Of a stretch of DNA of 64,000 bases, positions 1 through 19,287 are shown one piece after another. Numbering within the stretch: the first letter of the stretch is position 1; every line of letters starts with the position of its first letter. Both the position numbers and the translations under genes were made by a program. Source of the stretch: Streptomyces noursei (GTDB taxonomy: Bacteria; Actinomycetota; Actinomycetes; Streptomycetales; Streptomycetaceae); contig NZ_CP070326.1 of the NCBI RefSeq assembly GCF_016917755.1, positions 434,001 through 498,000 on the forward strand, read 5' to 3'. Below the pieces are notes generated by a model. That model was not told the origin of the DNA and did no database searches. It saw only the letters and a list, made by a program, of their open reading frames with translations.

Positions 1-881
1 TGTGCCGCACTTGATCCCAGCAGGGCGACCACGGGGTACGCGTCCCTCGTGGTTCCCGCTTCCGTACGATCGATGAGATTGATCAGCGGATCGCTGCCCA
101 GGCAGTGCGCGATCCGCCCCACGTTGTCCTGGTAGAGCTGCCGGGGTGCGAAGCCGGCCTCGCCCAGGAACAGCCGCAGGGTGTCCGCGGCGAGGTTGCT
201 GGGCAGGACCGCGGCGACCTCCGGCGGGGTCAGGCCGGTGGCCGACCACAGGTCCTCGAACAGGCCCTGATAGGCCGCGAGTTGGGCCCCGAGGCGGTGG
301 GCGGCGGGGCCGGTCCCGAAGAGGTCGTAGGAGACCTGACGGGCACCGCCGAGGATCTCCCATCCGTGTCGTCGGGCGGAGACGACGGCCGCGGCGGCCC
401 CGTCGCTGGCGACCGCCGAGCCGCCGAGGAGGACCCGGCCGCCCGGCAGCACCGTGCGCACCAGATCTCCCGAGACCACCGCCACGGTCCGGGCCGCGCC
501 CGAACCGACCAGCGCCGCCGCGACGGTGAGGGCCGCGGTGGCCGTGGAACAGTCGGCGAGGCCGAGCGTCAACGGGTAGGCGTGGGACATCCCCAGGTCG
601 CCGAGGAGCTGGGCGACGGCGGTCTGGGACGCCTCGCCCCCGGGCAGCGACTCGGTGGCGAACAGGACGGTGTCCACCGCCGCCGGGGGCGTCCCCGCAG
701 CGGCCAGCGCGTCCTTCAGGGCCGGGCGCAGCAGGTCCGACAGGCCGCCCCGCGCGAGCCGGTACGTGTCGAACCCGGCCCCCGGACGGGGCGGTTCCGA
801 GGCGTATTCCGGCAGTTCGGCCACCTTCCTGCGCAGATCGCCCAGCGCGGCGGCGCAACCGTTGAGATAGGCGGCGCTCAG
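1..881 (-). CDS. KASIII-like (3-oxoacyl-ACP synthase III family) protein, 3' end off the window
   Basis: Thiolase-fold condensing or acyl-transfer enzyme, last gene of the operon visible here; its C-terminus lies beyond base 1. The translation resembles the next gene upstream throughout. Both share an ATxSLPGG stretch, a candidate nucleophile Cys in ADCSTATAAL, an LPSN motif, and NVGRIAHCLGSDPLINL near the end. No ATG or GTG lies in frame near the aligned start. A CTG at 881, seven bases after a GGAGG-rich ribosome site, matches the paralogue's start, so CTG initiation is inferred. FabH-type enzymes carry His in an HQAN motif; here the equivalent reads LPSN, so the His in GRIAHC may take over. 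Role in the pathway (acyl transfer, release or condensation) is not determined. Family confidence is good, start moderate. Confidence 0.8.
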   Translation of the reverse strand, partial: MSAAYLNGCAAALGDLRRKVAELPEYASEPPRPGAGFDTYRLARGGLSDLLRPALKDALAAAGTPPAAVDTVLFATESLPGGEASQTAVAQLLGDLGMSHAYPLTLGLADCSTATAALTVAAALVGSGAARTVAVVSGDLVRTVLPGGRVLLGGSAVASDGAAAAVVSARRHGWEILGGARQVSYDLFGTGPAAHRLGAQLAAYQGLFEDLWSATGLTPPEVAAVLPSNLAADTLRLFLGEAGFAPRQLYQDNVGRIAHCLGSDPLINLIDRTEAGTTRDAYPVVALLGSSAA

Positions 882-922
882 CGCGCCCCCTCCGGCACCC
901 GTGTGGTGCGGGCGGTTGCCGC

Positions 923-1903
923 TCAGAAGGCTCCCTCCGAGGCGTCGGGCAATAGTCGCGCGTCCAGCAGTACGGCCGCCAGGTGCGAGATTCCCGCGCC
1001 GAGCAGCACCAGGTGTTCCGCACCGGTGCCGTCCTTCGTCCCCGGCCCGGCGGGTATGGCGTCGGCGAACCGGTCGGCGAGGTTGATCAGCGGGTCGCTG
1101 CCCAGGCAGTGCGCGATCCGGCCCACGTTGCCCAGGGCGAGCTTGTCCCCGCCGTAGCCGACGTCGGAGAGATAGATCTCCAGCGCCATGCGGGCGAAGT
1201 TGCTGGGCAGGACGGCGCGGACGCTCTCGGGGCGGTGCGGGTGGTGTGCCGCCAGGCGGGCGAACAGCTCGCGGTGTGCGGTGACCTTCGCGGTCAGCTC
1301 CTGTCGCGCCCCGCCGCCGGTGCCGGGGGCGGCCGAGGTGTGGTGGGCCATCCCCAGGATCGGAAGGCCCGCGGCGGTGGCGGACACCAGCGCGGAGGCC
1401 GCCGCGTCGCTCGCGATGGCCACTCCCCCCGCCACGACCCGCTCGCCGCCCGTGGCGTGGTCGGCCACGTCTCCGGAGACCACCAGGACGTGGCGCGCGC
1501 TGCCGTCCCGGACGAGGGAGGCGGCGGTGCCGAGGGCGGCCATGGCGGTGGCGCAGTCCATCAGGCCGAGGGTGCCGGCCGTGGCGCGGGTCAGTCCGGT
1601 CTCGGCGAGGAGTTCGGCGACGTCGCGGTGTGCCGCACGGCCGCCCGGCAGCGAGTCGGTGGCCAGCAGGACGAGATCGACCTCGTCGCCCGGGATCCCG
1701 GCCTCGCCCAGGGTGCACTGGACGGCGGCGGCCATCAGCTCCACGACGGGTGCGTCCGACCAGCGGTAGGTGGCGAACCCGGCGTTGGGGGCGGTCAGTT
1801 CGGCCGCGATGCGGGGGTCGGCCTGGAGCTCCGGCAGTTCGGTCACGGGGGCGGCGTACTCGCCCAGCTCATAGGCGGGGGCGCAGAGCCGTGCGGTGAT
1901 CAT
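923..1903 (-). CDS. KASIII-like (3-oxoacyl-ACP synthase III family) protein
   Basis: 326-residue thiolase-fold protein, paralogous to its downstream neighbour. The candidate nucleophile Cys is at about 117 (LMDCATAMAAL). LPSNFARM and GNVGRIAHCLGSDPLINL follow at about 235 and 265. The usual FabH HQAN histidine is replaced by Leu/Pro-type residues in LPSN, as in the paralogue, so this is not a standard fatty-acid initiation KASIII. Relatives in natural-product clusters can act as acyltransferases that move acyl groups from a carrier protein to an O- or N-acceptor; that role is inferred. ATG at 1903 overlaps the stop of the condensation gene by four bases, indicating coupled translation. A 41-base gap separates it from the truncated paralogue. 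Confidence 0.82.
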   Translation of the reverse strand: MITARLCAPAYELGEYAAPVTELPELQADPRIAAELTAPNAGFATYRWSDAPVVELMAAAVQCTLGEAGIPGDEVDLVLLATDSLPGGRAAHRDVAELLAETGLTRATAGTLGLMDCATAMAALGTAASLVRDGSARHVLVVSGDVADHATGGERVVAGGVAIASDAAASALVSATAAGLPILGMAHHTSAAPGTGGGARQELTAKVTAHRELFARLAAHHPHRPESVRAVLPSNFARMALEIYLSDVGYGGDKLALGNVGRIAHCLGSDPLINLADRFADAIPAGPGTKDGTGAEHLVLLGAGISHLAAVLLDARLLPDASEGAF

Positions 1904-3261
1904 GCCGGTCCCCCTTCGCCGGGTCGGCTCTCCACCGCGCCGCGGGCGGCCTGCTCGGCGAGTGCCGTGAACCGCTCGACGATCCGCCGCGCGGTGCTCT
2001 CCTCGTACAGCTCGGTGTCGTACTCCAGCCAGCCGTCGGCGCCGTCCGGGCCGGGGTAGACGGCCAGCGTCAGGTCATAGCGTGCGGTGCCCTTGTCCAG
2101 GTCGGCGGTGGCCACCTGGGCGCCCTGGATCTCCCGGGTGGCCTCCCCCAGGTTGTCGAAGACGAAGACGGCGTCCAACAGGGGGTGGGTGCCCGGCACC
2201 CTGCGCGCTTCGGCGATCAGTTCGCCGGGGTAGGCGGCGTGCGCGAGTCCTGCCCTGGTCGCGGCGCGGGCGGCCCGGGTGCGGGCGGCGTGCGAGCCGT
2301 CGCCGGCGTCCCGCAGCCGTACCGGCAGCACGTTGAGGAGATAGCCGACGACGTCGGTGCCGCCGGGCCGGTCCCGGCCCGCGGTGAACGTGCCGAGCAG
2401 CAGGTCGTCGCGGCCGCCGTGTTCGGCGAGCGCGGCCCAGGCGACGGCGAGCCATCCGATGTAGGCGGTGGCCGCTTCGCGCTGCGCGGCCGCCAGGATC
2501 CCCTCGGCGACCGTGCGGGACACCGCGAAGGGCACCCGGGCGCCCGCCCGACCGGTGCCTGCCGGGCGCGGCCGGTCGGTGGGCAGCGGCGGCGGGGCGT
2601 CGGCGACCTCGGACGCCCAGTACGCGGCCGCCGCCCGGCCCGCCGGGCTCTCCAGCCAGCCGCGCTGCTCGTGCGCGAAGGCGCTGAAGGCCGGCGCGGC
2701 GGGCGGGTCGGTGTCCGCGGGCCGGGCCAGTTCGTCCAGCAGCAGCTCGAACGACCAGGCGTCGAAGACGAGGTTGGGGACCACCACCAGCAGCCATGCC
2801 TGGTCGGCCGTCGGCCCCTGGGCGAGTGCCACCCGCAGCAGGGGGCCGTTGCCCAGGTCGAAGGGCTCGGCGGCCAGTTCGCGGGCGAGCGCGTGGGCCT
2901 CCTCGGCTCCCGAGCAGCGGGTGCGGATCAGCCCCGGGGGCAGCTGCGCGTGCACGACCGGGCGCACCGCGGCCCCGTCCCCGTCGCTTTCGAAGGTGGT
3001 GCGCAGCGCCTCGTGGGCCGCGACGAAGCCGTGCACGCGCGCGGCGAGCAGGTCGAGGTCGACCGGGGCGCCGGTGAGGTGGACTGCCTGGCAGACCACG
3101 TCCACCGGGCGATCGGCCACCCACTGCCTGGTCTCCCACAGCCGCAGCTGACCGGGGGTCAGCTGGTGCCGGGCGGCTCGTGCCCGGGGCAGGCGGGCGC
3201 GGAGGCGGGCCCGCTGCTCGGGGGTGAGTGCGGCGAGTCGGGCCGCGAGGTCGGCGGTCAT
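1900..3261 (-). CDS. Free-standing NRPS condensation-domain protein with degenerate active site
   Basis: 453 residues forming one condensation-superfamily fold. It begins with a C1-like LTPGQLRLW motif at about 34-42 and has RTTF at about 87. The active-site region reads VVPNLVFDAWS at about 160-170, where the family consensus is HHxxxDG. Both histidines, including the catalytic second His, are replaced by Pro-Asn (162-163), and the last Gly by Ala; the Asp is kept. The rest of the fold looks intact, so this is not a decayed gene. Classical amide or ester bond formation by the His-dependent mechanism is therefore doubtful. Non-catalytic scaffolding, recruitment of a tailoring enzyme, or a different reaction is possible. 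ATG at 3261 overlaps the monooxygenase stop by four bases. Confidence 0.88.
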   Translation of the reverse strand: MTADLAARLAALTPEQRARLRARLPRARAARHQLTPGQLRLWETRQWVADRPVDVVCQAVHLTGAPVDLDLLAARVHGFVAAHEALRTTFESDGDGAAVRPVVHAQLPPGLIRTRCSGAEEAHALARELAAEPFDLGNGPLLRVALAQGPTADQAWLLVVVPNLVFDAWSFELLLDELARPADTDPPAAPAFSAFAHEQRGWLESPAGRAAAAYWASEVADAPPPLPTDRPRPAGTGRAGARVPFAVSRTVAEGILAAAQREAATAYIGWLAVAWAALAEHGGRDDLLLGTFTAGRDRPGGTDVVGYLLNVLPVRLRDAGDGSHAARTRAARAATRAGLAHAAYPGELIAEARRVPGTHPLLDAVFVFDNLGEATREIQGAQVATADLDKGTARYDLTLAVYPGPDGADGWLEYDTELYEESTARRIVERFTALAEQAARGAVESRPGEGGPA

Positions 3262-4289
3262 GCGTAGCGCCTCCGGAGTTCGTTGAGGTGGCTCAGGCTC
3301 TCCGCGACGAGGGCTTCGTCGACGCCGAAGTCGATCAGGCAGGCGATCTCGTCCACACCCATGCCCTGGAAGCGGTCGACGACCTTGGTGCAGGAGTCCG
3401 GGGTGCCGAGCAGCGCGCCCTTCTCGAAGTACTTGTCGAAGGCGAACTTGATCAGCTCGTCCTGGTCGCCGGCCGAGATGTCCCGCACGCCCGCGCCCGG
3501 GGCGAGGTTCTTCTTCTGGGAGTCGATGACGGTGAAGAACGACCGCAGGTAGTCGCTGAACGGCGGCCAGACGGTCTCGCGCACCTCTTCCAGGTCGGTG
3601 CCGATGAAGGTGTGCAGCATCAGCGTGACCGTGGTGCTCTCGGGGTCGTGCCCGTACTGTTCGAGGGTTTCGTAGTAGAGGGCGAGCTTCTCCTCCAGCT
3701 CCTCGTTGGTCATGTCGATGAGCGCGGTCAGCACGTTGCAGCCGAGCCGTCCGGCCGTCTCGAAGGTCTCGCGGCTCTTGGTGCAGGTGAGCCAGATGGG
3801 GAGTTCGGGCTGTACGGGCTGCGGATGCAGTTCCACCTCGACGTGATTGCCCAGGCCGTCCTGGACGTAGACCGGTGCGCCCTCCCACAGTTCGCGGATG
3901 GTGGTGACCGCGTCGAAGGTGCGCTGCCGGCGGTCCTGCCAGCCGTCCGGTTTGATGGCGAAGTCCAACGGGCTGAAGCCGGTGGCCAGCGCGATGCCGG
4001 CGCGACCGCGGGAGAGGTTGTCGACCACCGCCCACTCCTCGGCCACCCGGATCGGGCTGTGCAGCGGCAGGATGACGCTGCCGGCCCGGATCTGCAGGCG
4101 CTGGGTGGCCATCGCCAGGCCGGCGCCGAGCACCGAGGGGTTGGGGTAGAGGCCGCCGAAGCGGTGGAAGTGCCGCTCGGGGGTCCAGATCGCGGTGAAG
4201 CCGTTCTCGTCGGCGTAGCGGGCCGCGTCGAGCACGAAGCGGTACTTGTTCTTCTCGTCGCCGGAGAAGAAGATCAGGCTGAAGTCCAC
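3258..4289 (-). CDS. Luciferase-like FMN-dependent monooxygenase of the NRPS/PKS-associated class
   Basis: 343-residue TIM-barrel flavin monooxygenase. Diagnostic stretches are the N-terminal MDFSLIFFSGDE, ENGFTAIWTPERHFHRFGG at about 30-48, NPSVLGAGLA, and LSRGRAGIALATGFSP at about 92-107. These are typical of luciferase-like monooxygenases found free or fused in NRPS/PKS assembly lines. They use reduced FMN and O2 to oxidise carrier-bound intermediates. The substrate here is unknown; the beta-hydroxy acyl chain on the PKS ACP is the obvious candidate because the gene directly follows the PKS with a two-base gap. Start is GTG at 4289. No flavin reductase is seen nearby, so a general cellular one would be needed. 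Confidence 0.9.
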   Translation of the reverse strand: MDFSLIFFSGDEKNKYRFVLDAARYADENGFTAIWTPERHFHRFGGLYPNPSVLGAGLAMATQRLQIRAGSVILPLHSPIRVAEEWAVVDNLSRGRAGIALATGFSPLDFAIKPDGWQDRRQRTFDAVTTIRELWEGAPVYVQDGLGNHVEVELHPQPVQPELPIWLTCTKSRETFETAGRLGCNVLTALIDMTNEELEEKLALYYETLEQYGHDPESTTVTLMLHTFIGTDLEEVRETVWPPFSDYLRSFFTVIDSQKKNLAPGAGVRDISAGDQDELIKFAFDKYFEKGALLGTPDSCTKVVDRFQGMGVDEIACLIDFGVDEALVAESLSHLNELRRRYA

Positions 4290-4291
4290 GG

Positions 4292-7200
4292 TCAGCGCTC
4301 CTGTTCCTGGCCGGTCCCGCCCTGCCGGGGGGCTTCTTGCTGGGTGACTGGCTGCTGGGCGGCTGCCTGCTGGGCGGTTTGCTGTTGGGCTTCGGCCAGC
4401 AGGCGTTCGACCTCGTCGGGGTCGAGTGCGGCCAGTTCCGCGGCCAGCGCCTCGATGTCGTCGCCGTCGGTCGCCGCCGGTGCCTGTGCCCGGGCGTCGA
4501 TCCGCTCCTGGACGAATCGGGCCAGTGCCCTCGGCGTCGGTTCCCCCAGCACATCGGCGAGCGGCACCTCGGCCGAGAACTGCTCCCGGATGTCGGACAG
4601 CAGACGCACGATCAGCAGCGAGTCACCGCCGAACTCGAAGATGTCCCCGTCCAGCGGCATGTCCTCGCGTCCCAGCGCCCCGCGGACCAGGCGCGCCACC
4701 TGCTCGGTCAGGTCGTCGGCGGCCCTGCCCTGCGCGCCCTCGCCGGTGACGGTGCCGGTGGCCCCGCCGGCCGTGGGCCGGGCGATCCGCTCGTCGCGCA
4801 CCCACTGGTCCAGTCGGTGTGCGATGTCCCAGGTGGAGACGGCGACATGGGAGACGTCGCGGAGCGTCAGCAGCCGGCGGATGGCCTCCAGGCCCTCCTC
4901 GGGCTGGATCGCCTTGTCGTCCATGCTGCGGCCGATCGCGGAGATCGCCCGCTTCTCGTCCTGGTGGTGTTGCCAGACGTCCCAGGCGGCGCTGATCCAC
5001 ACGGTGCGGTCCAGGCCGCGGTTGGCCCGTTCGGCGGCGGCGTCCATGAAGTGGTTGGCGGCGCCGTAGCCGAGCAGCCGCAGCCCGCCGAGGACCCCGG
5101 CCAAGGAGGACAGCAGCAGGCAGAAGTCCACCGGGTGGTCGGCGAGGACCTTCTCCAGCGCGATCTGGCCGTGCGCCTTGGGCGCGAAGTGCCATTGGCA
5201 CTGCTCGACGCTGGCCGCGGTGATCGCCCGGTCCCACTGTTCGCTGGGCAGTCCGGCCGCGTGCACCACGCCGTCGAGCGTGCCGAAGTGTGTGGTGACC
5301 TGGTGCACGGCGTCCCGCAGCGCGTCCTCGTCGGCGACGTCGGCGTGGACCAGGAACGGTTCGTCGCCCTCGGCACCCAGGGCCCGCAGCCGGGTGATCC
5401 GCAGTGCTGTCGGGTCGTCCGCGTCGTGTTCGGCGAGCCAGCTGTCCCACCTCTCGCGCAGTGGCAGCGGATCGCGGGTGAGCAGTGCCAGTCGGGCGCC
5501 GGGGCATTCGCGGCGCAGCCAGTGCGCGATGGTGGAGCCGATCTCGCCGAGTCCGCCGGTGATCAGGTAGACGCCGCCGTCGCGCAGGCGGGAGGCGGCC
5601 TTGGCGGTCCAGTCGGCGCGGATCGGTTCCAGGTCGGCGATCCAGCGGGTGGCGCCGCGCAGTGTGGTGGCGACCTCGGGGCGGCGCAGTCCGGCGAGTT
5701 CGGCGGCCAGGGTGCGCAGCGAGCGGTCGTCGGGGGTGGCGGGGAGGTCGAAGTGGCGGGAGCCGATGTTGCCGTGTTCCTGGCCGATGACGCGGGCGGC
5801 GACGGCGAGGGGGGCCAGTTCGGCGACCGGTTCGGGCTCGGCGGGGCTGATGGCGTAGCCGCCGGCGCTGATCAGGTCCAGCTGCAGGGGCTGGGTGACG
5901 CCGTGCGCACTGACCGCCTTGACCAGGGCCATCAGGCTGTAGAGGCCGTTGTGCTGGGCCTGTTCGAAGCGTTCCTTCCCGCGTTCGGGGGGCAGGGGGG
6001 CGGTGGACCAGGCGTGCACGATGCGGTCCGGGAGGCGGTCCTCGGCGAGCAGGTCGCCGATGAGCCGGGCGTGGTCGTCCTCGGAGTCCGGCCGCAGGGT
6101 CCAGGTGTCGCCGTCGCGTCGGTATTCGCTGCCGGCGGTGACGGTGAGGACCTCGCCCGCGAAGGCGTGCCGGGCCAGCCGTGTCGCGGTGCCCTGGGCG
6201 TCGGCGAAGAGCAGTACGGGGTCGGCGATCGGTTCGGCGGTGGCGTCGAGGGTGCCGACGGCCGGTCGCCACACGGGGGTGGAGAACCACTGGTCCAGCG
6301 GCAGTTTGCGCACGGTGCGCGCGCCGTTGCCGGTGCCGGTGAGGGTCCCGCTGCCGGGTTCGACCCAGTAGCGGGTCCCTTCGAAGGGGTAGGTGGGCAG
6401 GGGTACCCGGGCCCGCTCGCGGTCGGCGTAGTAGCCCTGCCAGTCCACGGTGAGGCCGGCCGCCCACAGCCGGCCGAGTGCGGCGGTCACCGCGGTCAGA
6501 TCGGCACCGGCGTCCCGTCCGCGGGCCGCGGAGGTGATGACCGGCACACCGGTCTCGCGGTCCGGGTGCCGGCGGGTGAAGGTGGCCAGCGTCTGACCGG
6601 GCCCGACCTCCAGGAAGACGTGGTCGCCGTCGGCGAGCACCGTGGTGAGGCAGTCGGCGAACCGTACGGTCTCGCGCAGCTGCCCGGCCCAGTACACCGG
6701 GTCCTGCGCCTCCTCGTCGCGTATCCAGGTGCCGGTGCGGTTGGAGAGGAACGGGGTCTGGGGGCAGCCCAGTTCGACGCCGCGCAGCAGCTCGGTGAAC
6801 GGGCCGACCACGGGGTCCATCATCGCCGAGTGGAAGGCGTGCGAGGTGACGACCTTGCGGTGGGCGACGCCGTCGGCGGTCAGCCGGGTGGTCAGTTCGC
6901 GTACGGCTTCCTTGGGACCGGCGACGGTGCACACGGCCGGCTCGTTGACGGCGGCGAGCGCGACCTCGCCGCCATCGAGGTATGCGGCCAGCTCCTGCGG
7001 CGGGAGCATCACCGCGGTCATCACCCCGCCGGGCAGCTCGTCCATCAGCCGGCCGCGCTCGGCGATCACCCGCAGCGCGTCGGGCAGCCGGAACACCCCG
7101 GCGAGGGTGGCGGCCACGTACTCGCCGACGCTGTGCCCGATCAGGGCGGCCGGGCGCACGCCCCAGGCCGACCACTGCCGGGCGAGCGCGTACTCGACGG

Positions 7201-9136: not shown

Positions 9137-11096
9137 AAGTGCCTCCTGGTTGCCGGTCGTTCGAGGGGGACGAAGCGTTGCGGGTACGGGCCGCGGCGCG
9201 GCGGCCGCCGTGGGCGGTGCGGCGGCGGGCTCCTCGGGCGGCGCCCGCCGCGGAGTCCTGCCGGTCGTCACCGCCGATGAGCCCCACCAGGCTGCGGAGG
9301 GTGGGGGCCCGGTACAGGTCGGTCATCCGCAGGTCGGGCGCGACGGTGCGGGTGAGCCGTTCGTGCACGGCGGCCATCCGCAGCGAGGTGCCGCCCAGGT
9401 CGAAGAAGTTGTCGTCGGGGCCGACGGTGTCGGTGCCCAGTGCCTCGCACCATGCCCGGGCCACCGCCCGCGCCAACGGTCCGGCTGCCGCAGGGCCGGC
9501 GCTGCCGGGCCCTGCGGTGCTCCGGCCGGGGTCCGCCGCGCTGAGCGCGGGCGGCAGCGCGGCGCGGTCGATCTTGTGGTTGGGCGTCAGCGGCAGGGCC
9601 GCCAGGAGGACGAACGCGGCCGGTACGGCGTGGGCGGGCAGGGTGCCGCGCAGTGCGGCCCGCAGCGCTGACGGCTCGGGGCGTGCGCCGTCGGCCGTCA
9701 CGAGATAGGCGGCGAGCTGCCGCTCCCCCGACCGGTCGTCGAACGGCATCACGACCGCCTCGGTCACCTGGGGGAGGTCCTTCAGCGCGCTCTCCACCTC
9801 GCCGGTCTCCACCCGGATCCCGGAGATCTTCACCTGGAAGTCGCGGCGCCCGATCAGCAGCAGCGTGCCGTCGTCGAGCCGCCGGGCGAGGTCGCCGGTG
9901 CGGTAGGTGCGGCCGTCCGCGACCGCGCCCGGGGCGAGGTAGGGGCTCTCGACGACGATCTCGCCCTCGCCCGGTCCCGCCACCACGCGCCCCTCGGCGT
10001 CCTCCAGCCGTACTTCCGTCTCCGCCACCGCGAACCCGAGCGGGAACACTCCGGTGGGGGGCCGGTAGTTCCGGTCGGCCACCCGGAGCAGGGCGCAGGA
10101 GCACTCGGTGGAGCCGTAGGCGCCGGCGACCCGGCAGTGCCTCCCGAAGGACCGCCGGGCGGCGTCGAGGTCGGCCAGGTGCAGGGTGTCGCCGCCGAGC
10201 GCGAGCATCCGCATCCCGGGCAGCTCGGTGGCGCGCGATGCCATGGCCCGGACCAGTGCCCGGAAGACGGGGAGCGTGGAGTGGTAGACCGTGACGCGTT
10301 CGGCGGCCATCCACTCCAACAGGCCCGTGATGCCGAGGGACTTGAGGTCGACCGGGTACAGCGCGGCGCCGTTGAGCAGCGCGGCGAAGGTGTCCTGGAC
10401 CGCGGAGTCCCAGCTGTAGGCGGACTGGAGGGTGACCCGGTCCAGCGGGCCGATGCCCAGGCCGTCGGTCCAGACCCGGGTGTGGTGCAGCACGTTGAGG
10501 TGGATCTGCGCGACGGGCTTGGGCCGCCCGGTGGAGCCGGAGGTGTAGAGCACGTACGCCTCGCTGTCCGGGCCCACCGGTGGCGCCGGCAGGTCGAGCC
10601 CGTCCGCCGCGTCGGTGCCGGACGGGTCCGTGCCCTTCGTCGGCACCAGGTCCTCGTATGCCAGCACCGGTCGGGTGCCGGCCAACCGGTCGGCGAGCGG
10701 CGCGTTGGCGGCGAGGGCGACCAGTGCGCGGATGCCGGCGTCGTCGGCCATGTAGCGGAGCCGGGATTCCGGGTAGGAGGCGTCCAGCGGCACGTAGGAC
10801 ATGCCGGCGCGCAACACCCCGAGCAGGGCGGCGATCATCTCCGCGCCGTGCGAGAACAGCAGGCCGACGCGGTCACCGGGCCGCAGGCCGGCCGCGGACA
10901 GCGCGGTGGCGACCCGGGCCGAGCGCCCCGCGGTCTCGCGGTAGGTCCAGCGGGCTTCGGGGGTGACCACGGCCTCGCGTTCGGGGTGTGCCGCGGCCTG
11001 CTCCAGGAAGCGGTGGACGAGCGTGCCCGCCTGCTGCGCGGTGGGGAACGGCCGGTGTCCGAAGGCCGCTTCGGACACTGGGGCCTCCTCGGTCAC
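9129..11096 (-). CDS. NRPS adenylation-PCP loading protein
   Basis: 655 residues: adenylation domain (about 1-510) then a PCP with DNFFDLGGTSL (about 555-565). Core motifs include YTSGSTGRPKP, AYGSTE, YRTGD, GRRDFQVKISGIRVE and NHKIDR with the catalytic Lys. The A3 loop has Pro in place of the usual Gly after RPK. The substrate pocket region reads SWDSAVQD, keeping an Asp-235 equivalent that usually contacts an alpha-amino group; the full code could not be assigned to a known amino acid. There is no condensation domain, so it can act as a loading unit feeding the downstream PKS. The C-terminal tail (last 40 residues) is Arg-rich and disordered-looking. GTG at 11096 overlaps the dehydrogenase stop. 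Confidence 0.93.
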   Translation of the reverse strand: MTEEAPVSEAAFGHRPFPTAQQAGTLVHRFLEQAAAHPEREAVVTPEARWTYRETAGRSARVATALSAAGLRPGDRVGLLFSHGAEMIAALLGVLRAGMSYVPLDASYPESRLRYMADDAGIRALVALAANAPLADRLAGTRPVLAYEDLVPTKGTDPSGTDAADGLDLPAPPVGPDSEAYVLYTSGSTGRPKPVAQIHLNVLHHTRVWTDGLGIGPLDRVTLQSAYSWDSAVQDTFAALLNGAALYPVDLKSLGITGLLEWMAAERVTVYHSTLPVFRALVRAMASRATELPGMRMLALGGDTLHLADLDAARRSFGRHCRVAGAYGSTECSCALLRVADRNYRPPTGVFPLGFAVAETEVRLEDAEGRVVAGPGEGEIVVESPYLAPGAVADGRTYRTGDLARRLDDGTLLLIGRRDFQVKISGIRVETGEVESALKDLPQVTEAVVMPFDDRSGERQLAAYLVTADGARPEPSALRAALRGTLPAHAVPAAFVLLAALPLTPNHKIDRAALPPALSAADPGRSTAGPGSAGPAAAGPLARAVARAWCEALGTDTVGPDDNFFDLGGTSLRMAAVHERLTRTVAPDLRMTDLYRAPTLRSLVGLIGGDDRQDSAAGAARGARRRTAHGGRRAAARTRNASSPSNDRQPGGTCD

Positions 11097-12208
11097 GGCG
11101 TCCCCCTCCCCTCGTGCGGGCCGTAGCCGAGGAGGACGGCGGGGTGCGCGGGTCGCTCGCGCAGTTCTGCGTACGCCTGTGCCGCGCGGCCCAGGGGCAG
11201 GCGCGGCAGCCCCATCTCCCGGGGGCGGATGGCACCGATGTCGATCAGGTCCAGGGCCCGCTGGAGGTTCTCGGTGACCGTGCCCTCGCCGGCCGGGGCC
11301 GTCACGTCGCGCAGTCCGCGTGCGTAGGCCGCGTCCCGGTAGCCGGCGCCGCAGCGGGCGGCGTAACGGATGTCGAGGTTGCCCAGTTCCACGCTGAAGT
11401 CGATGTGGGCGGCGAAGCGGCCCACGCCGACCAGCCTCGGCCGGCCCGGCGCCCGGTCCGCCCAGCGGGCCGCCGCCGCGATCACCTCGCCCGCGTCGCC
11501 GGTGCCGCACAAAAAGACGCACCGGCCGCCCGTCGGGCGCGCCTGCGGGGGGTCCGTCGCGAAGAAGCTTCCGCCGTCGGCCGCGTTCAGGCCGAGCGCC
11601 GCCGCCGTGCGCAGCCGTTCGGGGCGGAGATCGACCAGGGTGACCGGTATCCCGCGGGCCGCCGCGGTCTGGGCGACCAGCTGCCCGACCATGCCCGCGC
11701 CGACCACGACCACCTCGTCGTCGGCTTCCAGCACCGCCCGGTCCACCGCGTGCACGGCCGTCGCCGCCAGGCCGGCCACCACCGCGTCCGCCAGGTCCAG
11801 GTCGTGGGGGACATGGCGGCACAGCCGGTAGGGGACGGTGACCGCTTCGCTGTGCACGGCCTCGCCCCAGCCCATCGCGATGACCCGGTCTCCGGGGGCG
11901 TATCCGGGGGCCTGGGGGCCGACCGCCTCCACCACCCCGGCCGAGCAGTAGCCGAGGGGGAAGCGCTCGCCGGTGCGTGCGCTGCGGTCCAGGTAGTGCA
12001 GTTCGGTGCCGGGGCTGACCAGGCTCCACTCGGCGCGCAGCCGCAGCTCGCCGCGGCCGGGCGGTTCCCTGTGGACCTGCTCCGTCAGCGGTTCGGCCGC
12101 CCCGTCCGCGACCAACTGCCGTACCACCAAGGTGGTGGGGGTGGGCTGCCGGACGGCGTCCGGTTCCGTTGTCCGGCCCCCGGTGGGGATTCCGCGCACC
12201 GCGGTCAC
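11093..12208 (-). CDS. MDR-superfamily (zinc-type alcohol dehydrogenase-like) oxidoreductase
   Basis: 371-residue medium-chain dehydrogenase/reductase. Visible parts are an N-terminal GroES-like region with SLVSPGTEL and PLGYCSAGVVEAVG, a hinge YAPGDRVIAMG, and a Rossmann segment VVVVGAGMVGQLVAQ at about 175. The structural zinc cysteine cluster is not evident. It resembles Streptomyces bacteriochlorophyllide-dehydrogenase-like and sugar-alcohol dehydrogenase-like MDRs. Oxidation of a ring hydroxyl to a ketone, the substrate an aminotransferase would need, is the likely role but is inferred from neighbours. GTG at 12208 is preceded by AGGAGG and overlaps the ferredoxin gene stop (GTGA), so I prefer it to further upstream starts. 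Confidence 0.82.
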   Translation of the reverse strand: MTAVRGIPTGGRTTEPDAVRQPTPTTLVVRQLVADGAAEPLTEQVHREPPGRGELRLRAEWSLVSPGTELHYLDRSARTGERFPLGYCSAGVVEAVGPQAPGYAPGDRVIAMGWGEAVHSEAVTVPYRLCRHVPHDLDLADAVVAGLAATAVHAVDRAVLEADDEVVVVGAGMVGQLVAQTAAARGIPVTLVDLRPERLRTAAALGLNAADGGSFFATDPPQARPTGGRCVFLCGTGDAGEVIAAAARWADRAPGRPRLVGVGRFAAHIDFSVELGNLDIRYAARCGAGYRDAAYARGLRDVTAPAGEGTVTENLQRALDLIDIGAIRPREMGLPRLPLGRAAQAYAELRERPAHPAVLLGYGPHEGRGTP

Positions 12209-13422
12209 CTGTCTTCCTCCTGCTCCGGGGCCGCGATCCACTTCTCGTCGGGCACGATTTCCAGCTCCTCCTGATACCCGGGTATCGGTCCCAGCGGCAC
12301 CGGTTTGCCGGACCGCTCGTAGGACGCCCGGCGGTTGCGCTTGCGCTCCAGTCCGAGGTTGAGCCCGGCCAGATCGACCGGCTCGTCGGCGAGCAGTCCG
12401 TGCTCCCGCGCCGCGGCGACCGCTCGGGCACCGGCCCGGGTGCGGATGAACACCCGCCCGTGCTTGGGCTGTTCGGCGCCGGTCACGCTCGCGGCGAAGA
12501 TGTTCGGATCGCCGTCGCTGACACTGATGTCGGCGAGCCCGGACATCCAGTCACCGCAGGACAGGCAGCGGTGCGTCTTGTTCCCCGCGAAGTCCCGCAC
12601 CGCGCGCCAGAATTCCACCCGGTGGTCCGCTCCGTCGTCCGTGCGGATGGCGATGTCACCGGGGTAGGCGCCGTCGCGGTAGCGCAGCCGGACCACGGAG
12701 TCCAGGGGGACGCCCGCCCGCTCGCGGATCACGGCGGCGGTTCCTTCGGGGCGGGTACTGGAGGAACAGGCCGGTTCGACCAGCAGCACCACGTGCTCGC
12801 GCGCCCAGCGGCCCACCTCGGTGTCCATCGCCTGGAGCTTGCGCATCGCCTGGATGTGGCAGGCCACCCCGGACATGGCGACCCGGGCGTCGGGCTCCTC
12901 GATCATCAGGGGCCGTAACGCGCCTAAGTAGGGGGCGAGTTGGTAGGTCGACTGGGCGGTCTCCACCAGGTCGTCCGGGTCTCGCACCAGGGCCGGTGCG
13001 GCCCGCCAGGGCTCCTTCTCGTCCCGCCCCATCGAGAGCACCGCCGTCACCTCCAGCCTGTGCATGGCGGTCTGGAGGAGGGCGGTCAGGCTGCCGCCGC
13101 TGGCGGACGTCTCGTAGACCACCGGGTCCAGGGCGTGCCCGGCGACCACCTCGGAGAAGACGCCGATCCAGCGTTCCCGCGGGGTGCGGGTGCGGCCGAA
13201 CAGGCGCTCCTCGGCCGCCGGGGTGCCGGGGTCGGCTCCCGGGCAGACGTCGAGGCAGTCGGAGCAGTCCGCGCAGTCGGCGGCGGTCCAGGACTCCGTG
13301 GTGAGCACGGGGTCCAGTCCGTCGAAGCCGATCACCCCGGCCGGACAGGCGAGTTCGCAGGCCCCGCACACGGTGCACAGGCCCGGATCCAGCACGTCCT
13401 TCTGGAGCTGCTGGAACGTCAT
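12205..13422 (-). CDS. 4Fe-4S ferredoxin / FrhB-type (coenzyme F420 hydrogenase beta-subunit family) reductase
   Basis: 405 residues. Two complete ferredoxin motifs lie at the N-terminus: CTVCGACELACP (Cys 16, 19, 22, 26) and CADCSDCLDVCP (Cys 50, 53, 56, 60). The remainder is FrhB-like, with ETSASGGSLTALL near 110, SGVACHIQAM, and a third cysteine group CLSCGDWMSGLADIS near 300. Known members include the F420-dehydrogenase beta subunit and the plant/cyanobacterial ferredoxin-dependent reductases of (bacterio)chlorophyll side chains (BciB, HCAR), which reduce C=C or remove an allylic hydroxyl using FAD and Fe-S clusters. In this operon, reduction or deoxygenation of a shikimate-type ring is a reasonable inference. 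ATG at 13422 overlaps the aminotransferase stop by four bases. Confidence 0.9.
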   Translation of the reverse strand: MTFQQLQKDVLDPGLCTVCGACELACPAGVIGFDGLDPVLTTESWTAADCADCSDCLDVCPGADPGTPAAEERLFGRTRTPRERWIGVFSEVVAGHALDPVVYETSASGGSLTALLQTAMHRLEVTAVLSMGRDEKEPWRAAPALVRDPDDLVETAQSTYQLAPYLGALRPLMIEEPDARVAMSGVACHIQAMRKLQAMDTEVGRWAREHVVLLVEPACSSSTRPEGTAAVIRERAGVPLDSVVRLRYRDGAYPGDIAIRTDDGADHRVEFWRAVRDFAGNKTHRCLSCGDWMSGLADISVSDGDPNIFAASVTGAEQPKHGRVFIRTRAGARAVAAAREHGLLADEPVDLAGLNLGLERKRNRRASYERSGKPVPLGPIPGYQEELEIVPDEKWIAAPEQEEDR

Positions 13423-14726
13423 GTTCGACCGCTCCCGTCCGCCTGCGTCACCGCCGTCGCGATCCGCTCCACCAGCCAGCGGTAGTCCGCCTCCTCCAGG
13501 AGGGCCGGCGGGACGATCTTGACCGAGGCGCCCTCCGGGCCGCCGCCGAACAGCAGCAGCCGCTCCCGCAGCGCAGCACCGGTGACGGCCTTGGCCAGGG
13601 CGGGATCGAACCGCCCGTCGGGTACGCAGTCGAAGGCCGCCAGCGCCCCGACGGTGCGCACGGCGCGCATCCACGGGTGGCGGGCGGCCAGTTCCGTCAG
13701 GTCGGCCCGCAGCCGGTCACCGAGCGCCCGCGCCCGGCCCGCCACGTCCTGCCGCTCGACGATGTCGACGACCGCGGCGGCCGCGGCGCAGGAGACGGGA
13801 TGGCCGGAGAAGGTGGAGGTCTGCACGCTCGGCGGCAGCGCGTCCAGCACCGCCCGCTCCCCCACCACGGCGGCGATCGGGAAGCCGTTGCCCAGCGTCT
13901 TGCCGAGCAGCGTCAGATCCGGGGTCCGGGTCATCAGCTCGGCGGTGAACAGCCGCCCGGCCCGCCCCAACCCCGTGTAGATCTCGTCCAACACCAGCAG
14001 CGCGCCCCGGGAGTGCGCCTGCCGCGCGATCTCGTCGAGGATCGCACTGGATACCGGCAGCACCCCTTCGGTCACCTGGACGGGTTCGAGGACCACCGCC
14101 GCGGTGCCGCCACGGCGATCGGCGGCGTCCAGCGCGGCGGCGAGACCGGCCGCGAAGCGGGCCATGCCGTCCGCCTGGTCGCCGAGGCGGGGGTCGGGAA
14201 GCTCCGCGGTGACGACATGGTCGGGTTGCGGTGCGCTGTAGGTCTTGAACTCCGGGCGCCAGGTCAGGGCCAACGCTCCGGCGGTCTTGCCGTGGTAGCC
14301 GTGCCGGAAGGCCACCACCGCCTGGTGTCCGGTGGCCGCCCGGGCGATCTTCAGTGCGGACTCCACCGCCTCGGCCCCGGTCGCGGTGGGCAGCACCGCG
14401 GGCTCCCGGTACGGCGACAGCGCGCCGATCCGTTCGACCATGCGCGTCCGGGCGTCCGAGCCGACCTTGCAGCCGGTGTGGGTCAGGCGGCCGAGCTGGG
14501 CGACCGCGGCGGCGGTCACTTCGGGGTGCTGATGGCCGAGGGTCGCCGCGCCGCTTCCGGACGTGCCGTCGAACCAGGCGGTGCCGTCCTCGGTGTGGAG
14601 CCAGGGGCCGCTGCCGGTGCTGAATTCGGGGCCGAGCGTACTGCCGGTGGACCGCGCCTCCACGGCGCCGGCGCCGTCCCTCCTTCCCCGCACACCGGCC
14701 GCCGCGTCGGTCACTGAGTCGGTCAT
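13419..14726 (-). CDS. Class III PLP-dependent aminotransferase
   Basis: 435-residue fold-type I aminotransferase of the omega/class III group. Landmarks are the N-terminal TGSGPWLHTEDG, GHQHPEV, TGAEAVESALKIAR at about 115, HGYHGKTAGAL, EPVQ, the PLP-ring Asp in VLDEIYTGLGR, the Schiff-base Lys in LLGKTLGNGFPIAAV, and TFSGHPVSCAAA. Class III enzymes transfer amino groups to aldehydes or ketones away from an alpha-carboxylate. Here it could aminate a carbocyclic keto acid made by the neighbouring dehydrogenase. ATG at 14726 overlaps the preceding gene by four bases. The assignment is secure; the substrate is unknown. Confidence 0.93.
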   Translation of the reverse strand: MTDSVTDAAAGVRGRRDGAGAVEARSTGSTLGPEFSTGSGPWLHTEDGTAWFDGTSGSGAATLGHQHPEVTAAAVAQLGRLTHTGCKVGSDARTRMVERIGALSPYREPAVLPTATGAEAVESALKIARAATGHQAVVAFRHGYHGKTAGALALTWRPEFKTYSAPQPDHVVTAELPDPRLGDQADGMARFAAGLAAALDAADRRGGTAAVVLEPVQVTEGVLPVSSAILDEIARQAHSRGALLVLDEIYTGLGRAGRLFTAELMTRTPDLTLLGKTLGNGFPIAAVVGERAVLDALPPSVQTSTFSGHPVSCAAAAAVVDIVERQDVAGRARALGDRLRADLTELAARHPWMRAVRTVGALAAFDCVPDGRFDPALAKAVTGAALRERLLLFGGGPEGASVKIVPPALLEEADYRWLVERIATAVTQADGSGRT

Positions 14727-16192
14727 CGCTGGCTGTCCTCCACGATCCGGGCGCCGACGGCACGTTGCACGTCGGCGAAGTCGGGAAATGACGTGTGGTG
14801 GCAGGCGCCGCCGCGCACGGTCGTGCGTCCGGGGAGGCACATCGCCAGGGTCGCGGCGGCCATCGCGACGCGGTGGTCCTCGAAGCCGGGCACGGTGCCG
14901 GCGCGCAGGGCGGCTCCGCCGCGGACCGTCAGGCCGTCCGCCGCCACCTCGACCCGGGCCCCGAACGCACCGACCATGCGCGCCGTCGTCGTCAACCGGT
15001 CGGTCTCCTTGAACCGCAGTTCCTCGGCGCACCCGATCCTCGACGTGCCGGGCAGGAGAGCGGCGACCACGGCGAGCAGCGGCACCTCGTCGATCAGTGC
15101 GTGCAGCAGGGCGGGATCGTCGACCCGCACCGACTCCAGCCCCTCCAGTCCGCCCCTGGCCACCACCGTTCCGATCGGCTCACCACCACTGGTACGCCGT
15201 TCGTCCTCGTACGAAATGTCGGCACCGGCCCGCCGTAGGACCTCGAAGAACCCCAACCGGGTCGGGTTGAGGCAGACGCCCGGGACGCGCAGCTCGGCGT
15301 CGTCGCCCCACATCAGGTGGGCTGCCACGGGATACGCCGCGAGGGAGGGGTCGGCGGGCACGTCGATGACGGACGGGACGGTGTACGGCCCGCCGTCCCA
15401 GGTGATCGTGCGGTCGCGCTCGTGCAGTCCCGCACCGAACGCGGCGAGCATCCGCTCGGTGTGGTCGCGGGAACGGACCGGGTGCCGCACGGTGGCCGGG
15501 AGCCTGGCCGCGGCCACGGCGAGCAGCACCGCGGACCGGGCCTGGGCGCTTCCCACGGACAACTCCACCGCCGCGGACCGGCACACCGGTGCCCGCACCA
15601 GCACGGGTAAGCGTCCTGCGTCGCCCAAGTAGTCTATTTCCGCGCCGAGTTCGACCAGCGGATCGACGATCCACTCCATCGGCCGGTGGCGCAACACCTC
15701 GTCGCCGTCCACCACCGCACGGGTTCCGGTCCCGGCCAGCAGCCCGATCAGCAGTCGCGCCGCGGCGCTGGATCCGCCGGTCTCCAGATACGGCACGTCC
15801 GCGGGCCAGGCAGTGATGCCGCAGTGCGCGCGAACCGTCTGCGGGACGGGCACCGCGCCATGGCGCACGACGAGCGTGCCGCCCCCCTCGTCGTCCACCC
15901 GCAACCCCAACGCACGCAGCGCAGGCAGCAACGCCCGTACCGCACCGCCCAAGTTGGCGTTGCGGACGGTGAGGACGGCGGGGGCACCGGGTAACAGGGC
16001 GGCCAGCAGCGCCCGGTGACTCACCGACTTGTCGCCTGCCACGGCGACGGTCAACGGGCCGCGGCGCCCCAACTCCCGGCCGCCGTCCACCACGAGGTGC
16101 GCCGCCTCGGTCGCCGGTCTGTCGAATCGCCGGGCACCGTCGTCGACGGCGTCCCGGGCCGTTTCCCGGACGGTCTTCCGCACCTCAGGCAC
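14723..16192 (-). CDS. EPSP-synthase-like (AroA family) enzyme with altered PEP-binding loop
   Basis: 489 residues, first gene of the biosynthetic operon. Conserved family motifs: GDKSVSHRALLAALL (about 53-67), SAQARSAVLLA, RDHTERML, DPSLAA, RFKETDRL, FEDHRVAMA and SFPDF. The family loop LGNAGTAMR, which binds phosphoenolpyruvate, reads TGGSSAAAR at about 138-146, and the Lys of SAQ-K is Arg. An N-terminal extension of about 45 residues precedes the fold. The core is otherwise preserved, so I read this as a pathway-specific paralogue and not the housekeeping AroA. EPSPS homologues occur in pathways making cyclohexane-type acids from shikimate. GTG at 16192, preceded by GGGAG, is preferred over an ATG at 16279 that lacks a ribosome site. 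Confidence 0.88.
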   Translation of the reverse strand: MPEVRKTVRETARDAVDDGARRFDRPATEAAHLVVDGGRELGRRGPLTVAVAGDKSVSHRALLAALLPGAPAVLTVRNANLGGAVRALLPALRALGLRVDDEGGGTLVVRHGAVPVPQTVRAHCGITAWPADVPYLETGGSSAAARLLIGLLAGTGTRAVVDGDEVLRHRPMEWIVDPLVELGAEIDYLGDAGRLPVLVRAPVCRSAAVELSVGSAQARSAVLLAVAAARLPATVRHPVRSRDHTERMLAAFGAGLHERDRTITWDGGPYTVPSVIDVPADPSLAAYPVAAHLMWGDDAELRVPGVCLNPTRLGFFEVLRRAGADISYEDERRTSGGEPIGTVVARGGLEGLESVRVDDPALLHALIDEVPLLAVVAALLPGTSRIGCAEELRFKETDRLTTTARMVGAFGARVEVAADGLTVRGGAALRAGTVPGFEDHRVAMAAATLAMCLPGRTTVRGGACHHTSFPDFADVQRAVGARIVEDSQR

Positions 16193-16692
16193 CCCCTGCT
16201 CCCTTCCCTGAGGCCGCAAGACCCGGAACAGCCGACCGCACCGTCCCCTGCGGCGAATCACACCTGCGCTGACGCACACAACACTCCGAAGCCGTCACTG
16301 AGTTGAGGAGAGGGGATACCCCTGCCGGAGGCGGCCGGGCTGCTCACGGTCACATGGGAATCACGTGTCGGCGCAATCGTTCATGGTGGTTCGGCAACCC
16401 CCAGGGGGACTCGCTGGCGCATTCGACTCAACCACCCCGGCCGAGCGGATGTCAACGAAAGTTGGATCATTCCCTGATAGGCGGTCATCCCCTATAAGCA
16501 CCGAAGAAAGTACCGCTTCCCCTGCGCAAGCTCCCCTAATCACCCAAAATTTGAAAGGATTCCAAGGCGGCTTCGCATGATCGCGCAGCACGTCACCGCA
16601 GGGGGCGCCCCTGGGTCGCGGCGCCCCGACAACACCACCGCGACCAGCGCAACGACGTGCCCGACACCGCCCCAGCACCGCCGGACCACCGC
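16193..16692 (-). promoter_or_regulatory. Upstream region of the biosynthetic operon; no gene seen
   Basis: About 500 bases between the operon's first start codon and the end of the response regulator gene, which reads towards it. Part of it (about 16480-16570) is conspicuously AT-richer than the surroundings. A TTGACA sequence on the minus strand at 16455-16450 could be a -35 element, but no convincing -10 follows at 17-18 bases. Short open frames here lack coding character. The operon promoter must lie in this region because all downstream junctions overlap or nearly so. Confidence 0.45.
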
Positions 16693-19090: not shown

Positions 19091-19287
19091 GCTAGGCAGC
19101 GCGCCAGGCCCGCACCATGCGGTTCACCGCCCGACCACACTGCGGTTTTCCGCAATTGCCGCCCCCACCGGTCCCGTTCCTCGGCGGCACCGGCGGGGCA
19201 CCGGCGGGGCACCGACACGAACACCACCCACCGTGATCGCGCAATAACCAGATGCAACTTTTCCTGACTTGTCCCTACGCTTCAGCG

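What the first reader, a model, noticed from the sequence alone, without database searches (positions are those of the whole stretch)
1..16192. Coupled operon for a compound predicted to be built from an aminated shikimate-type ring and one malonate
Ten genes are read as one unit with overlapping stops and starts at almost every junction. The order (EPSPS-like, aminotransferase, FrhB-like reductase, dehydrogenase, A-PCP, KS-AT-KR-ACP, luciferase-like oxygenase, C-like, KASIII-like, KASIII-like) suggests a dedicated supply of an amino-carbocyclic acid, followed by loading, malonate extension, ketoreduction and oxidation. I could not match this gene set to a known product.
Basis: partly seen in the sequence, partly recalled or inferred. 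Interest (0 to 1): 0.85.

Follow-up and report, generated by a model that had tools for sequence, protein, structure and literature searches.

The report
Operon with a repurposed shikimate enzyme
A Streptomyces-type bacterium carries a tight run of genes in which an altered copy of a shikimate-pathway enzyme sits beside an aminotransferase and two oxidoreductases, a gene block that recurs in four bacterial phyla and is predicted to make an unusual amino-bearing carbon ring that assembly-line enzymes would then lengthen into a small, likely bioactive, compound.

Summary
Ten minus-strand genes fill bases 16192 to 1, 7 of 9 junctions overlap, and the run continues 9.3 kb past base 1 with seven more genes, including an exporter and a second NRPS protein. 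Of 28 homologous loci, 26 hold the whole block EPSPS-like / class III aminotransferase / FrhB-like / dehydrogenase, in Actinomycetota, Pseudomonadota, Bacteroidota and Cyanobacteriota. The EPSPS-like proteins form one clade beside housekeeping AroA: shikimate-3-phosphate and catalytic residues stay, but Gly/Ala96-Thr97 of the PEP loop became mostly Ser-Ala. The window's genome has a separate AroA. The neighbouring adenylation domain keeps one code pattern across phyla, so it probably loads the block's product. Best reading: a dedicated route to an aminated cyclohexene/diene carboxylate, loaded, extended by one malonate, ketoreduced and alpha-hydroxylated. Product and chemistry are inferred, not shown. 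Ten paper searches found no matching cluster in an open-access library. The main rival is that the EPSPS-like gene is a resistant target copy.

The parts
14723..16192 (-). EPSP-synthase-like protein with remodelled PEP loop (first gene of the operon)
   Evidence: PF00275 233 bits; TIGR01356 aroA 277.3 bits, just below its 287.25 cut-off; loop residues; GTG at 16192 gives 489 aa, the length of its 98% relative P0121
13419..14726 (-). class III (PLP) aminotransferase
   Evidence: PF00202 269 bits; nearest solved structures are 4-aminobutyrate aminotransferases
12205..13422 (-). FrhB-like iron-sulfur flavoprotein with N-terminal 4Fe-4S ferredoxin domain
   Evidence: PF04432 74.8 and PF04422 53.1 bits, both over cut-off; family alignment A1
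11093..12208 (-). medium-chain dehydrogenase-like oxidoreductase (BchC-like)
   Evidence: NCBIfam bchC 41 bits and 6-hydroxycyclohex-1-ene-1-carbonyl-CoA dehydrogenase 32 bits, both far below cut-off; found with FrhB in 26 of 28 loci
9129..11096 (-). A-PCP: adenylation domain (code DSQHAGACAK) and carrier protein
4292..9136 (-). one-module PKS: KS-AT(malonyl type, HAFH)-KR-ACP, no DH hit
   Evidence: Pfam domains; active-site motifs by eye in the translation
3258..4289 (-). FMN luciferase-like monooxygenase, MupA/Atu3671 family
   Evidence: TIGR04020 459.9 bits over cut-off 244.45; nearest solved structure PuwE 6ket, 364 bits
1900..3261 (-). free-standing condensation-like protein; HHxxxDG replaced by PNLVFDA
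   Evidence: PF00668 159 bits; motif
923..1903 (-). KASIII-like protein 1 (Cys-Ser-His in place of Cys-His-Asn)
   Evidence: weak PF08545 26 bits; AlphaFold2 model pLDDT 90 with KASIII fold; triad
1..881 (-). KASIII-like protein 2, probable CTG start at 881, runs on left of base 1 to L006:19964
   Evidence: open frame and homologues

Best explanation
The operon holds a conserved four-gene block, an altered EPSP synthase relative, a class III aminotransferase, an FrhB-like iron-sulfur flavoprotein and an alcohol-dehydrogenase-like protein, that is predicted to turn a shikimate-type ring into an amino-ring carboxylic acid, which the neighbouring A-PCP would load and the single PKS module likely lengthens by one malonate. 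Committed mechanism (steps marked). Shown by sequence: the EPSPS relative keeps the residues that bind shikimate-3-phosphate and do the chemistry, and has lost Gly/Ala96-Thr97 of the PEP loop. Inferred: it therefore binds shikimate-3-phosphate or an analogue and, without normal enolpyruvyl transfer, helps an elimination or displacement at the ring; the FrhB-like protein supplies electrons to remove or reduce a ring position; the dehydrogenase oxidises a ring alcohol to a ketone; the aminotransferase, a relative of GABA aminotransferases, aminates it at a position gamma to the carboxylate, giving an amino-cyclohexene or -cyclohexadiene carboxylate of the gabaculine kind. Inferred: A-PCP loads it, KS-AT-KR-ACP adds one malonate and leaves a beta-hydroxyl, the TIGR04020 monooxygenase hydroxylates the alpha carbon, and the odd C-like and KASIII-like proteins transfer or release the C9 unit. 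In the window the chain is probably joined to a Val-like residue by the second NRPS protein and exported; the GNAT could be self-protection by N-acetylation.
For: Block recurrence: of 28 loci found by homology to the FrhB-like protein, EPSPS-like and aminotransferase hits lie in 27 of 28, dehydrogenase in 26, an A-PCP in 24 (at 27-33% identity in the Pseudomonas/Agrobacterium loci), PKS and LLM in 13, leaving out one partial PKS hit in L030 (L024 is a 3.8-kb contig with FrhB alone). In those 13 (11 Actinomycetota, Halothiobacillus, Flavobacterium) the C-like and KASIII-like genes are there too, 13 of 13. In the window's genus 10 of 392 genomes hold the FrhB-like gene at E<=1e-60, and the aminotransferase and dehydrogenase flank it in 10 of 10; six of these are loci already counted, one is the window, three are new. 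As a small control, three generic FrhB stretches from two genomes have neither neighbour. EPSPS divergence: Ser at E. coli position 96 in 27 of 28 cassette copies and Ala at 97 in 26 of 28, against Gly/Ala-Thr in 18 of 18 AroA-type rows read from 16 of 17 cassette-holding genomes; Ser96 in 98 of 98 readable rows among the first 102 database relatives and in 0 of the next 18. One clade in the tree. The A1 code keeps D235, H278, G301, K517 in 23 of 23 loci read. LLM nearest PuwE. Passages of PMC8739492 describe TIGR04020 enzymes as alpha-hydroxylases; passages of PMC12159101 tell of an EPSPS homologue re-used in secondary metabolism.
Against: No product is known and no enzyme of the block has been assayed here. 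The order of ring steps, the starting compound and the amine position are guesses from families. The score is only just under the aroA cut-off (277.3 against 287.25) and databases name the relatives 3-phosphoshikimate 1-carboxyvinyltransferase. PEP-site residues Lys22, Arg124, Arg344 and Arg386 are kept (5 of 94 Ser-Ala database rows have Gln at 124), so a PEP-like ligand may still bind. Asn94 is no marker: 7 of the 18 AroA-type rows lack it too, and sites 313 and 340 align as Glu and His in the actinobacterial AroAs. The two substrate-binding Arg of GABA aminotransferase (recalled) seem to be Lys here (by eye). The A1 code keeps Asp235, which in most A domains binds an alpha-amino group (recalled); a gamma-amino ring acid would need another geometry. 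In Lysinibacillus (L032) the EPSPS relative keeps Asn94 and Thr97 and an SDR stands where the dehydrogenase would be. PMC8739492 passages also give chain shortening as an LLM outcome. Tree support for the whole cassette clade is 84 (99 without L032), with long branches.
Confidence: 0.53

Rival explanations
1. The EPSPS-like gene is a resistant copy of the target: the product inhibits EPSP synthase or binds its PEP site, and the altered loop keeps aromatic synthesis going in the producer. The ring precursor then comes from elsewhere.
For: The clade-specific changes include positions 96 and 97 of the PEP loop, where glyphosate-insensitivity changes are known (recalled), while shikimate-3-phosphate and catalytic residues stay. 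Target copies inside antibiotic clusters are common (recalled).
Against: The gene is found with the aminotransferase and FrhB genes in 27 of 28 loci even where the downstream machinery differs, which fits a pathway step better than an add-on; a GNAT that accompanies most of these clusters could already give protection. Neither point is decisive.
Confidence: 0.22
2. The EPSPS-like gene and the chorismate mutase-like gene only raise flux to chorismate and prephenate, and the building block is an aromatic or prephenate-derived amino acid.
For: A chorismate mutase-like protein (NF005894, 47.6 bits, below its cut-off of 73) lies downstream in the window's operon.
Against: The chorismate mutase-like gene is found in only 2 of 10 further actinobacterial regions read downstream (L056, L058), whereas the EPSPS relative is in 27 of 28 loci; a flux booster would be expected to keep the PEP loop; no prephenate decarboxylase or aromatic aminotransferase family appears among the 15 of 17 genes scanned with Pfam.
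Confidence: 0.08
3. The EPSPS relative moves an enolpyruvyl group to or from an unusual partner, as proposed for BsnM of the bisenarsan cluster, and the amine-bearing unit is built from that three-carbon group rather than from the ring.
For: BsnM precedent (passages of PMC12159101); PEP carboxylate-binding arginines 344 and 386 are kept.
Against: No mutase or decarboxylase family like those of the bsn cluster appears among the 15 of 17 genes scanned with Pfam; BsnM sequences were not obtained for comparison.
Confidence: 0.1

Closest known systems
EPSP synthase (AroA, TIGR01356)
   Same: Family; residues that bind shikimate-3-phosphate and the catalytic Asp313, Lys340, Glu341 are kept.
   Different: Gly/Ala96-Thr97 of the PEP loop became mostly Ser-Ala; separate clade; score just below the curated aroA cut-off.
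BsnM of the bisenarsan cluster (EPSPS homologue re-used in secondary metabolism; passages of PMC12159101)
   Same: An EPSPS homologue needed for a secondary metabolite in a cluster with a PKS.
   Different: There it works with a phosphoglycerate mutase and a phosphonopyruvate decarboxylase homologue on arsenate; here with aminotransferase, FrhB-like and dehydrogenase genes.
Aminoshikimate (AHBA) pathway, rifGHIJKLMN (passages of PMC8788734)
   Same: Supplies an aminated C7 carbocyclic acid to an assembly line.
   Different: No such gene among the 15 of 17 genes scanned with Pfam; the nitrogen here would be added by a class III aminotransferase.
Cyclohexanecarboxylate supply of ansatrienin (recalled; a PMC8788734 passage, says only that labelled shikimate enters that moiety)
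   Same: Shikimate-derived ring stripped of oxygens for a PKS.
   Different: Gene sets could not be compared here; I saw no sequence of those clusters.
PuwE / TIGR04020 luciferase-like monooxygenases
   Same: Family membership over cut-off; PKS-linked.
   Different: Acts, if as predicted, on a ring-bearing ACP-bound C9 unit.
KASIII-fold acyltransferases ChlB3, DpsC, CerJ, NatS (their roles recalled)
   Different: Cys-Ser-His at the FabH positions 112/244/274; 66 relatives at E<=1e-10 among 7999 scored candidates.

Membership tests
EPSP synthase (AroA) | EPSP_synthase family score | tested here: met
   PF00275 233 bits against cut-off 22.8
EPSP synthase (AroA) | shikimate-3-phosphate and catalytic residues | tested here: met
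   K22 S23 R27 R124 S169 Q171 D313 K340 R344 R386 in 28 of 28 cassette copies, E341 in 27; all eleven in 85 of 94 Ser-Ala database rows
EPSP synthase (AroA) | Gly/Ala96-Thr97 of the PEP loop | tested here: not met
   Ser96 in 27 of 28, Ala97 in 26 of 28 cassette copies, the window among them; 18 of 18 AroA-type rows have G/A-T
EPSP synthase (AroA) | curated aroA equivalog score | tested here: not met
   TIGR01356 277.3 bits, cut-off 287.25
EPSP synthase (AroA) | enolpyruvyl transfer activity | not testable with these tools
   needs an assay
Aminoshikimate (AHBA) pathway | amino-DAHP synthase, amino-DHQ synthase, amino-DHQ dehydratase, AHBA synthase genes | tested here: not met
   no such domain among the Pfam hits of 15 of the 17 genes; KASIII-like 2 and the free PCP were not scanned in frame
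FrhB family flavoprotein | FrhB_FdhB N and C domains over cut-off | tested here: met
   53.1 and 74.8 bits against 22 and 23.3
F420 hydrogenase subunit FrhB (TIGR03289) | equivalog score | tested here: not met
   60.4 bits against 331.5
Class III aminotransferase | PF00202 over cut-off | tested here: met
   269 bits against 30.5
GABA aminotransferase (TIGR00700) | equivalog score | tested here: not met
   216 bits against 507, though GabT entries are the nearest solved structures
MupA/Atu3671 luciferase-like monooxygenase (TIGR04020) | subfamily score | tested here: met
   459.9 bits against 244.45
Ketoacyl synthase III (FabH) condensing enzyme | KASIII fold | tested here: met
Ketoacyl synthase III (FabH) condensing enzyme | Cys-His-Asn triad | tested here: not met
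NRPS condensation domain (lone C protein) | HHxxxDG motif | tested here: not met
   PNLVFDA in the window; Asn for the second His and Ala for Gly in the copies of all 13 nine-gene loci; L030's C domain, of another NRPS, keeps HH
Cyclohexanecarboxylate pathway | kinship of its EPSPS homologue with the one here | not tested
   sequences of those clusters were not obtained

The most novel reading that the evidence does not exclude
A horizontally spread pathway cassette has turned EPSP synthase from enolpyruvyl transfer to ring deoxygenation of shikimate-3-phosphate, and together with an FrhB-like iron-sulfur flavoprotein, a dehydrogenase and a GABA-aminotransferase relative it makes gabaculine-type amino-cyclohexadiene acids; bacteria of at least four phyla build these GABA mimics into antimetabolites, in the window as an alpha,beta-dihydroxy C9 unit joined to a Val-like residue.
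Probability: 0.25. Interest if true: 0.87.

Novelty: new variant of a known kind. Interest (0 to 1): 0.72.

Why it matters
If right, a central enzyme of primary metabolism and the glyphosate target has a widely scattered secondary-metabolic branch with a changed active site, and a new shikimate-derived building-block route can be mined by a two-residue signature (Ser96-Ala97). The product class would be amino-ring antimetabolites, possibly acting on PLP enzymes or on EPSP synthase itself. It also gives a defined set of odd assembly-line parts (C-like without the catalytic His, KASIII-like with Cys-Ser-His) that travel together in all 13 nine-gene loci and are ready for testing.

Tried and rejected
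AHBA/aminoshikimate origin: rejected, no such genes among the 15 of 17 scanned with Pfam. EPSPS-like as the genome's only aroA: rejected. Plain flux boost: rejected as main reading because the chorismate mutase-like gene is rare among relatives. Known cluster: ten paper searches (53 was aimed at the monooxygenase) gave no matching gene set. I saw listings only, cut to 20 of 451, 15 of 25 and 15 of 158; the one paper (PMC12144821, ichizinones) and the six were not opened. Most subscription papers and MIBiG are not held, so absence there is weak. The paper PMC11043010 (a shikimate review) was not held. Passages of PMC11153758 proved unrelated. The FrhB-like protein was not found on 72,556 plasmid records at E<=1e-40. 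Promoter and terminator scans gave nothing useful: at the operon's right end none; at its left end one minus-strand promoter-like site beyond the last gene and one terminator-like site on the plus strand. The suspected amidinotransferase of the cyanobacterial loci was not confirmed by Pfam. Foldseek and VIA-align do not separate FabH from ChlB3/DpsC/CerJ for the KASIII-like model; a fold match shows no function.

Changed on re-checking: I had counted loss of Asn94 against the resistance rival, but 7 of 18 AroA-type rows lack Asn94 too, so I dropped that argument and moved the odds from 0.55/0.20 to 0.53/0.22. I had called the genus sample independent; six of its ten places are loci already counted (L009, L010, L011, L014, L015, L035, by coordinates).

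Rows dropped before counts: of 34 loci five gave no tblastn hit (L003, L074, L089, L090, L092), six were unlike AroA at the key sites and taken as MurA-like (L004, L070, L072, L079, L087, L093), one was a fragment (L098) and four were cassette copies (L002, L084, L097, L099); 18 rows remain, three of them (L075, L077, L094) extra AroA-type homologues rather than plain housekeeping copies. One search returned only 30 loci of its longer match list. In one search, 4 of 102 cassette-type rows are truncated at the loop, and the split after row 102 follows the residue and a drop in score (271 to 239 bits). In one search, L008 was too short to read an A code.

Full report
The window is bases 434001-498000 of a single-contig 9.86-Mb genome. 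Its nearest named relatives for two cluster genes are Streptomyces sp. 769 (EPSPS-like, 98%) and S. noursei ATCC 11455 (KASIII-like, 96%). Seven of nine junctions overlap. I extended the region left of base 1: the run goes on with the rest of KASIII-like 2 (to L006:19964), a free PCP (L006:19703-19957, read by its motif), an MFS exporter (18372-19691), A-PCP-C (15268-18375), a chorismate mutase-like protein (14951-15271), an FMN-dependent hydroxyacid dehydrogenase (13731-14930), a CocE/NonD-type hydrolase (11752-13734) and a tandem GNAT (10724-11686), with 4-nt overlaps or gaps of 6-20 nt at these junctions but the last (65 nt).

Relatives. A search with the FrhB-like protein gave an alignment used to scan GTDB species genomes by peptide patterns: 28 loci, not an exhaustive list. 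Mapping the operon's proteins onto them: EPSPS-like 27 of 28, aminotransferase 27, dehydrogenase 26, an A-PCP 24, PKS 13, LLM 13 (one partial PKS hit in L030 left out). The 13 are 11 Actinomycetota, a Halothiobacillus MAG and Flavobacterium salmonis; all 13 also hold the C-like and KASIII-like genes, so nine genes form a core that crosses three phyla. KASIII-like matches were found in 15 of the 17 genomes searched for them. Pseudomonas, Agrobacterium vitis and cyanobacteria keep the four-gene block and an A domain, but no PKS or LLM hit lies in the fetched stretches. Lysinibacillus keeps FrhB, EPSPS-like and aminotransferase, with an SDR, a creatininase-like, a PhzF-like, a FemAB-like and ATP-grasp proteins. 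The second KASIII-like, PCP, MFS and A-PCP-C set occurs in 5 of 10 further actinobacterial regions read downstream, the chorismate mutase-like/FMN dehydrogenase/hydrolase trio in 2 of 10, and a GNAT hit in 8 of 10, the other two having one upstream (L012, L013). In the genus, 10 of 392 genomes carry the FrhB-like gene, always with aminotransferase and dehydrogenase neighbours; six of these places repeat loci above, one is the window and three are new. In a sample of 396 genomes of the phylum only the window's own reached such a score; the other matches, three stretches in two genomes at about E 1e-63, have none of the neighbours.

The EPSPS relative. The genome holds four PF00275 proteins; the one at 6403553 is an AroA with GNAGT. 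In the cassette copies the shikimate-3-phosphate and catalytic residues are kept, but the PEP loop is changed: Ser at position 96 in 27 of 28 copies, Ala at 97 in 26 of 28; the exceptions are L030 (Ser-Cys) and L032 (Ala-Thr, with Asn94 kept). AroA-type proteins from 16 of 17 genomes that hold the cassette have G/A-T in 18 of 18 rows; Asn94 is absent from 7 of them, so it is no marker. Among the 120 listed database relatives, the first 102 have Ser96 in 98 of 98 readable rows (94 Ser-Ala, 4 Ser-Thr); the next 18 have Gly or Ala. A scan for columns that differ between the two groups lists 16, among them 96, 97, 128, 172, 173 and 339, next to active-site residues as I recall them. In a tree of 47 rows the cassette copies are one side of a branch (support 84; 99 without Lysinibacillus), next to the AroAs of Pseudomonas, Scytonema and Lysinibacillus.

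What the block makes. The aminotransferase's nearest solved relatives are GABA aminotransferases, though it is far below their equivalog cut-off. The dehydrogenase is distantly like BchC and 6-hydroxycyclohex-1-ene-carbonyl-CoA dehydrogenase. The FrhB-like family is distantly like 7-hydroxymethyl chlorophyll a reductase (5dqr, E 2e-10) as well as, more closely, F420 hydrogenase subunits. An oxidised, aminated and partly deoxygenated shikimate-type ring is the simplest product of these families together; that is inference. The adjacent A domain has the code DSQHAGACAK; 17 of 23 loci read have DSQH.G...K and the six Pseudomonas/Agrobacterium loci DAMHVGATAK, so the substrate is likely the same across phyla and likely the block's product. 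The second A domain's code (DALWLGG..K; two positions came out differently) resembles valine codes (recalled).

Assembly. KS, AT, KR and ACP motifs look intact and the AT carries the malonyl-type HAFH motif (by eye, motif meanings recalled). The LLM is over the TIGR04020 cut-off and closest to PuwE; passages of PMC8739492 say such enzymes alpha-hydroxylate, or in CalD and MndB shorten chains by a Baeyer-Villiger-type step. The lone C protein has Asn for the second His of HHxxxDG and Ala for Gly in the copies of all 13 nine-gene loci. The KASIII-like protein folds as KASIII but has Cys-Ser-His at the FabH triad positions: Cys 21 of 21, His in place of Asn274 21 of 21, the usual His244 in 0 of 21. 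Both may transfer or release the acyl unit rather than condense; this is inference.

Rivals and limits. A resistant EPSPS copy is the strongest rival, because the changed loop is also where glyphosate-insensitivity changes fall (recalled). The constant company of the gene, across clusters with different downstream enzymes, argues for a pathway step, but only an assay can decide. Ten paper searches found no cluster with this set, in a library without most subscription journals. PMC12159101 passages give the one precedent found for an EPSPS homologue re-used in secondary metabolism, BsnM, with different companions.

Noticed in passing
window 881 (minus strand): KASIII-like 2 has no ATG/GTG/TTG at its expected start; CTG at 881 follows GGAGGGGG, suggesting a rare CTG start.
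   Followed up: partly
L075, L077, L094 (genomes G010, G006, G004): Extra EPSPS homologues, 39-41% identical to E. coli AroA, with an altered first half of the loop (R-x-x-G/A-T); they may be BsnM-like (not tested).
   Followed up: no
L032:9992-18903: Lysinibacillus locus joins FrhB, EPSPS-like and aminotransferase genes to SDR, creatininase-like, PhzF-like, FemAB-like and ATP-grasp proteins, which looks like a ligase-built peptide pathway using a related ring.
   Followed up: partly
L023:16317-17462, L022:8917-10062: Cyanobacterial loci carry a protein that looks like an amidinotransferase by eye next to the aminotransferase; Pfam gave no support for the L023 copy.
   Followed up: partly
L006:11752-13734 (left flank): CocE/NonD-type S15 hydrolase with an apparent signal peptide (by eye) near the end of the operon; could be an extracellular prodrug-trimming enzyme.
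   Followed up: no
L006:10724-11686 and relatives: A GNAT (tandem in the window) accompanies most of the clusters, a candidate self-resistance acetyltransferase.
   Followed up: partly
window 16693-18404: A LuxR-type response regulator and, by eye, a histidine kinase lie just upstream of the operon on the same strand, a possible regulator.
   Followed up: no
P0103: In Breoghania the FrhB-like protein is fused to a creatininase-family domain, the same family as the creatininase-like gene in the Lysinibacillus locus.
   Followed up: no
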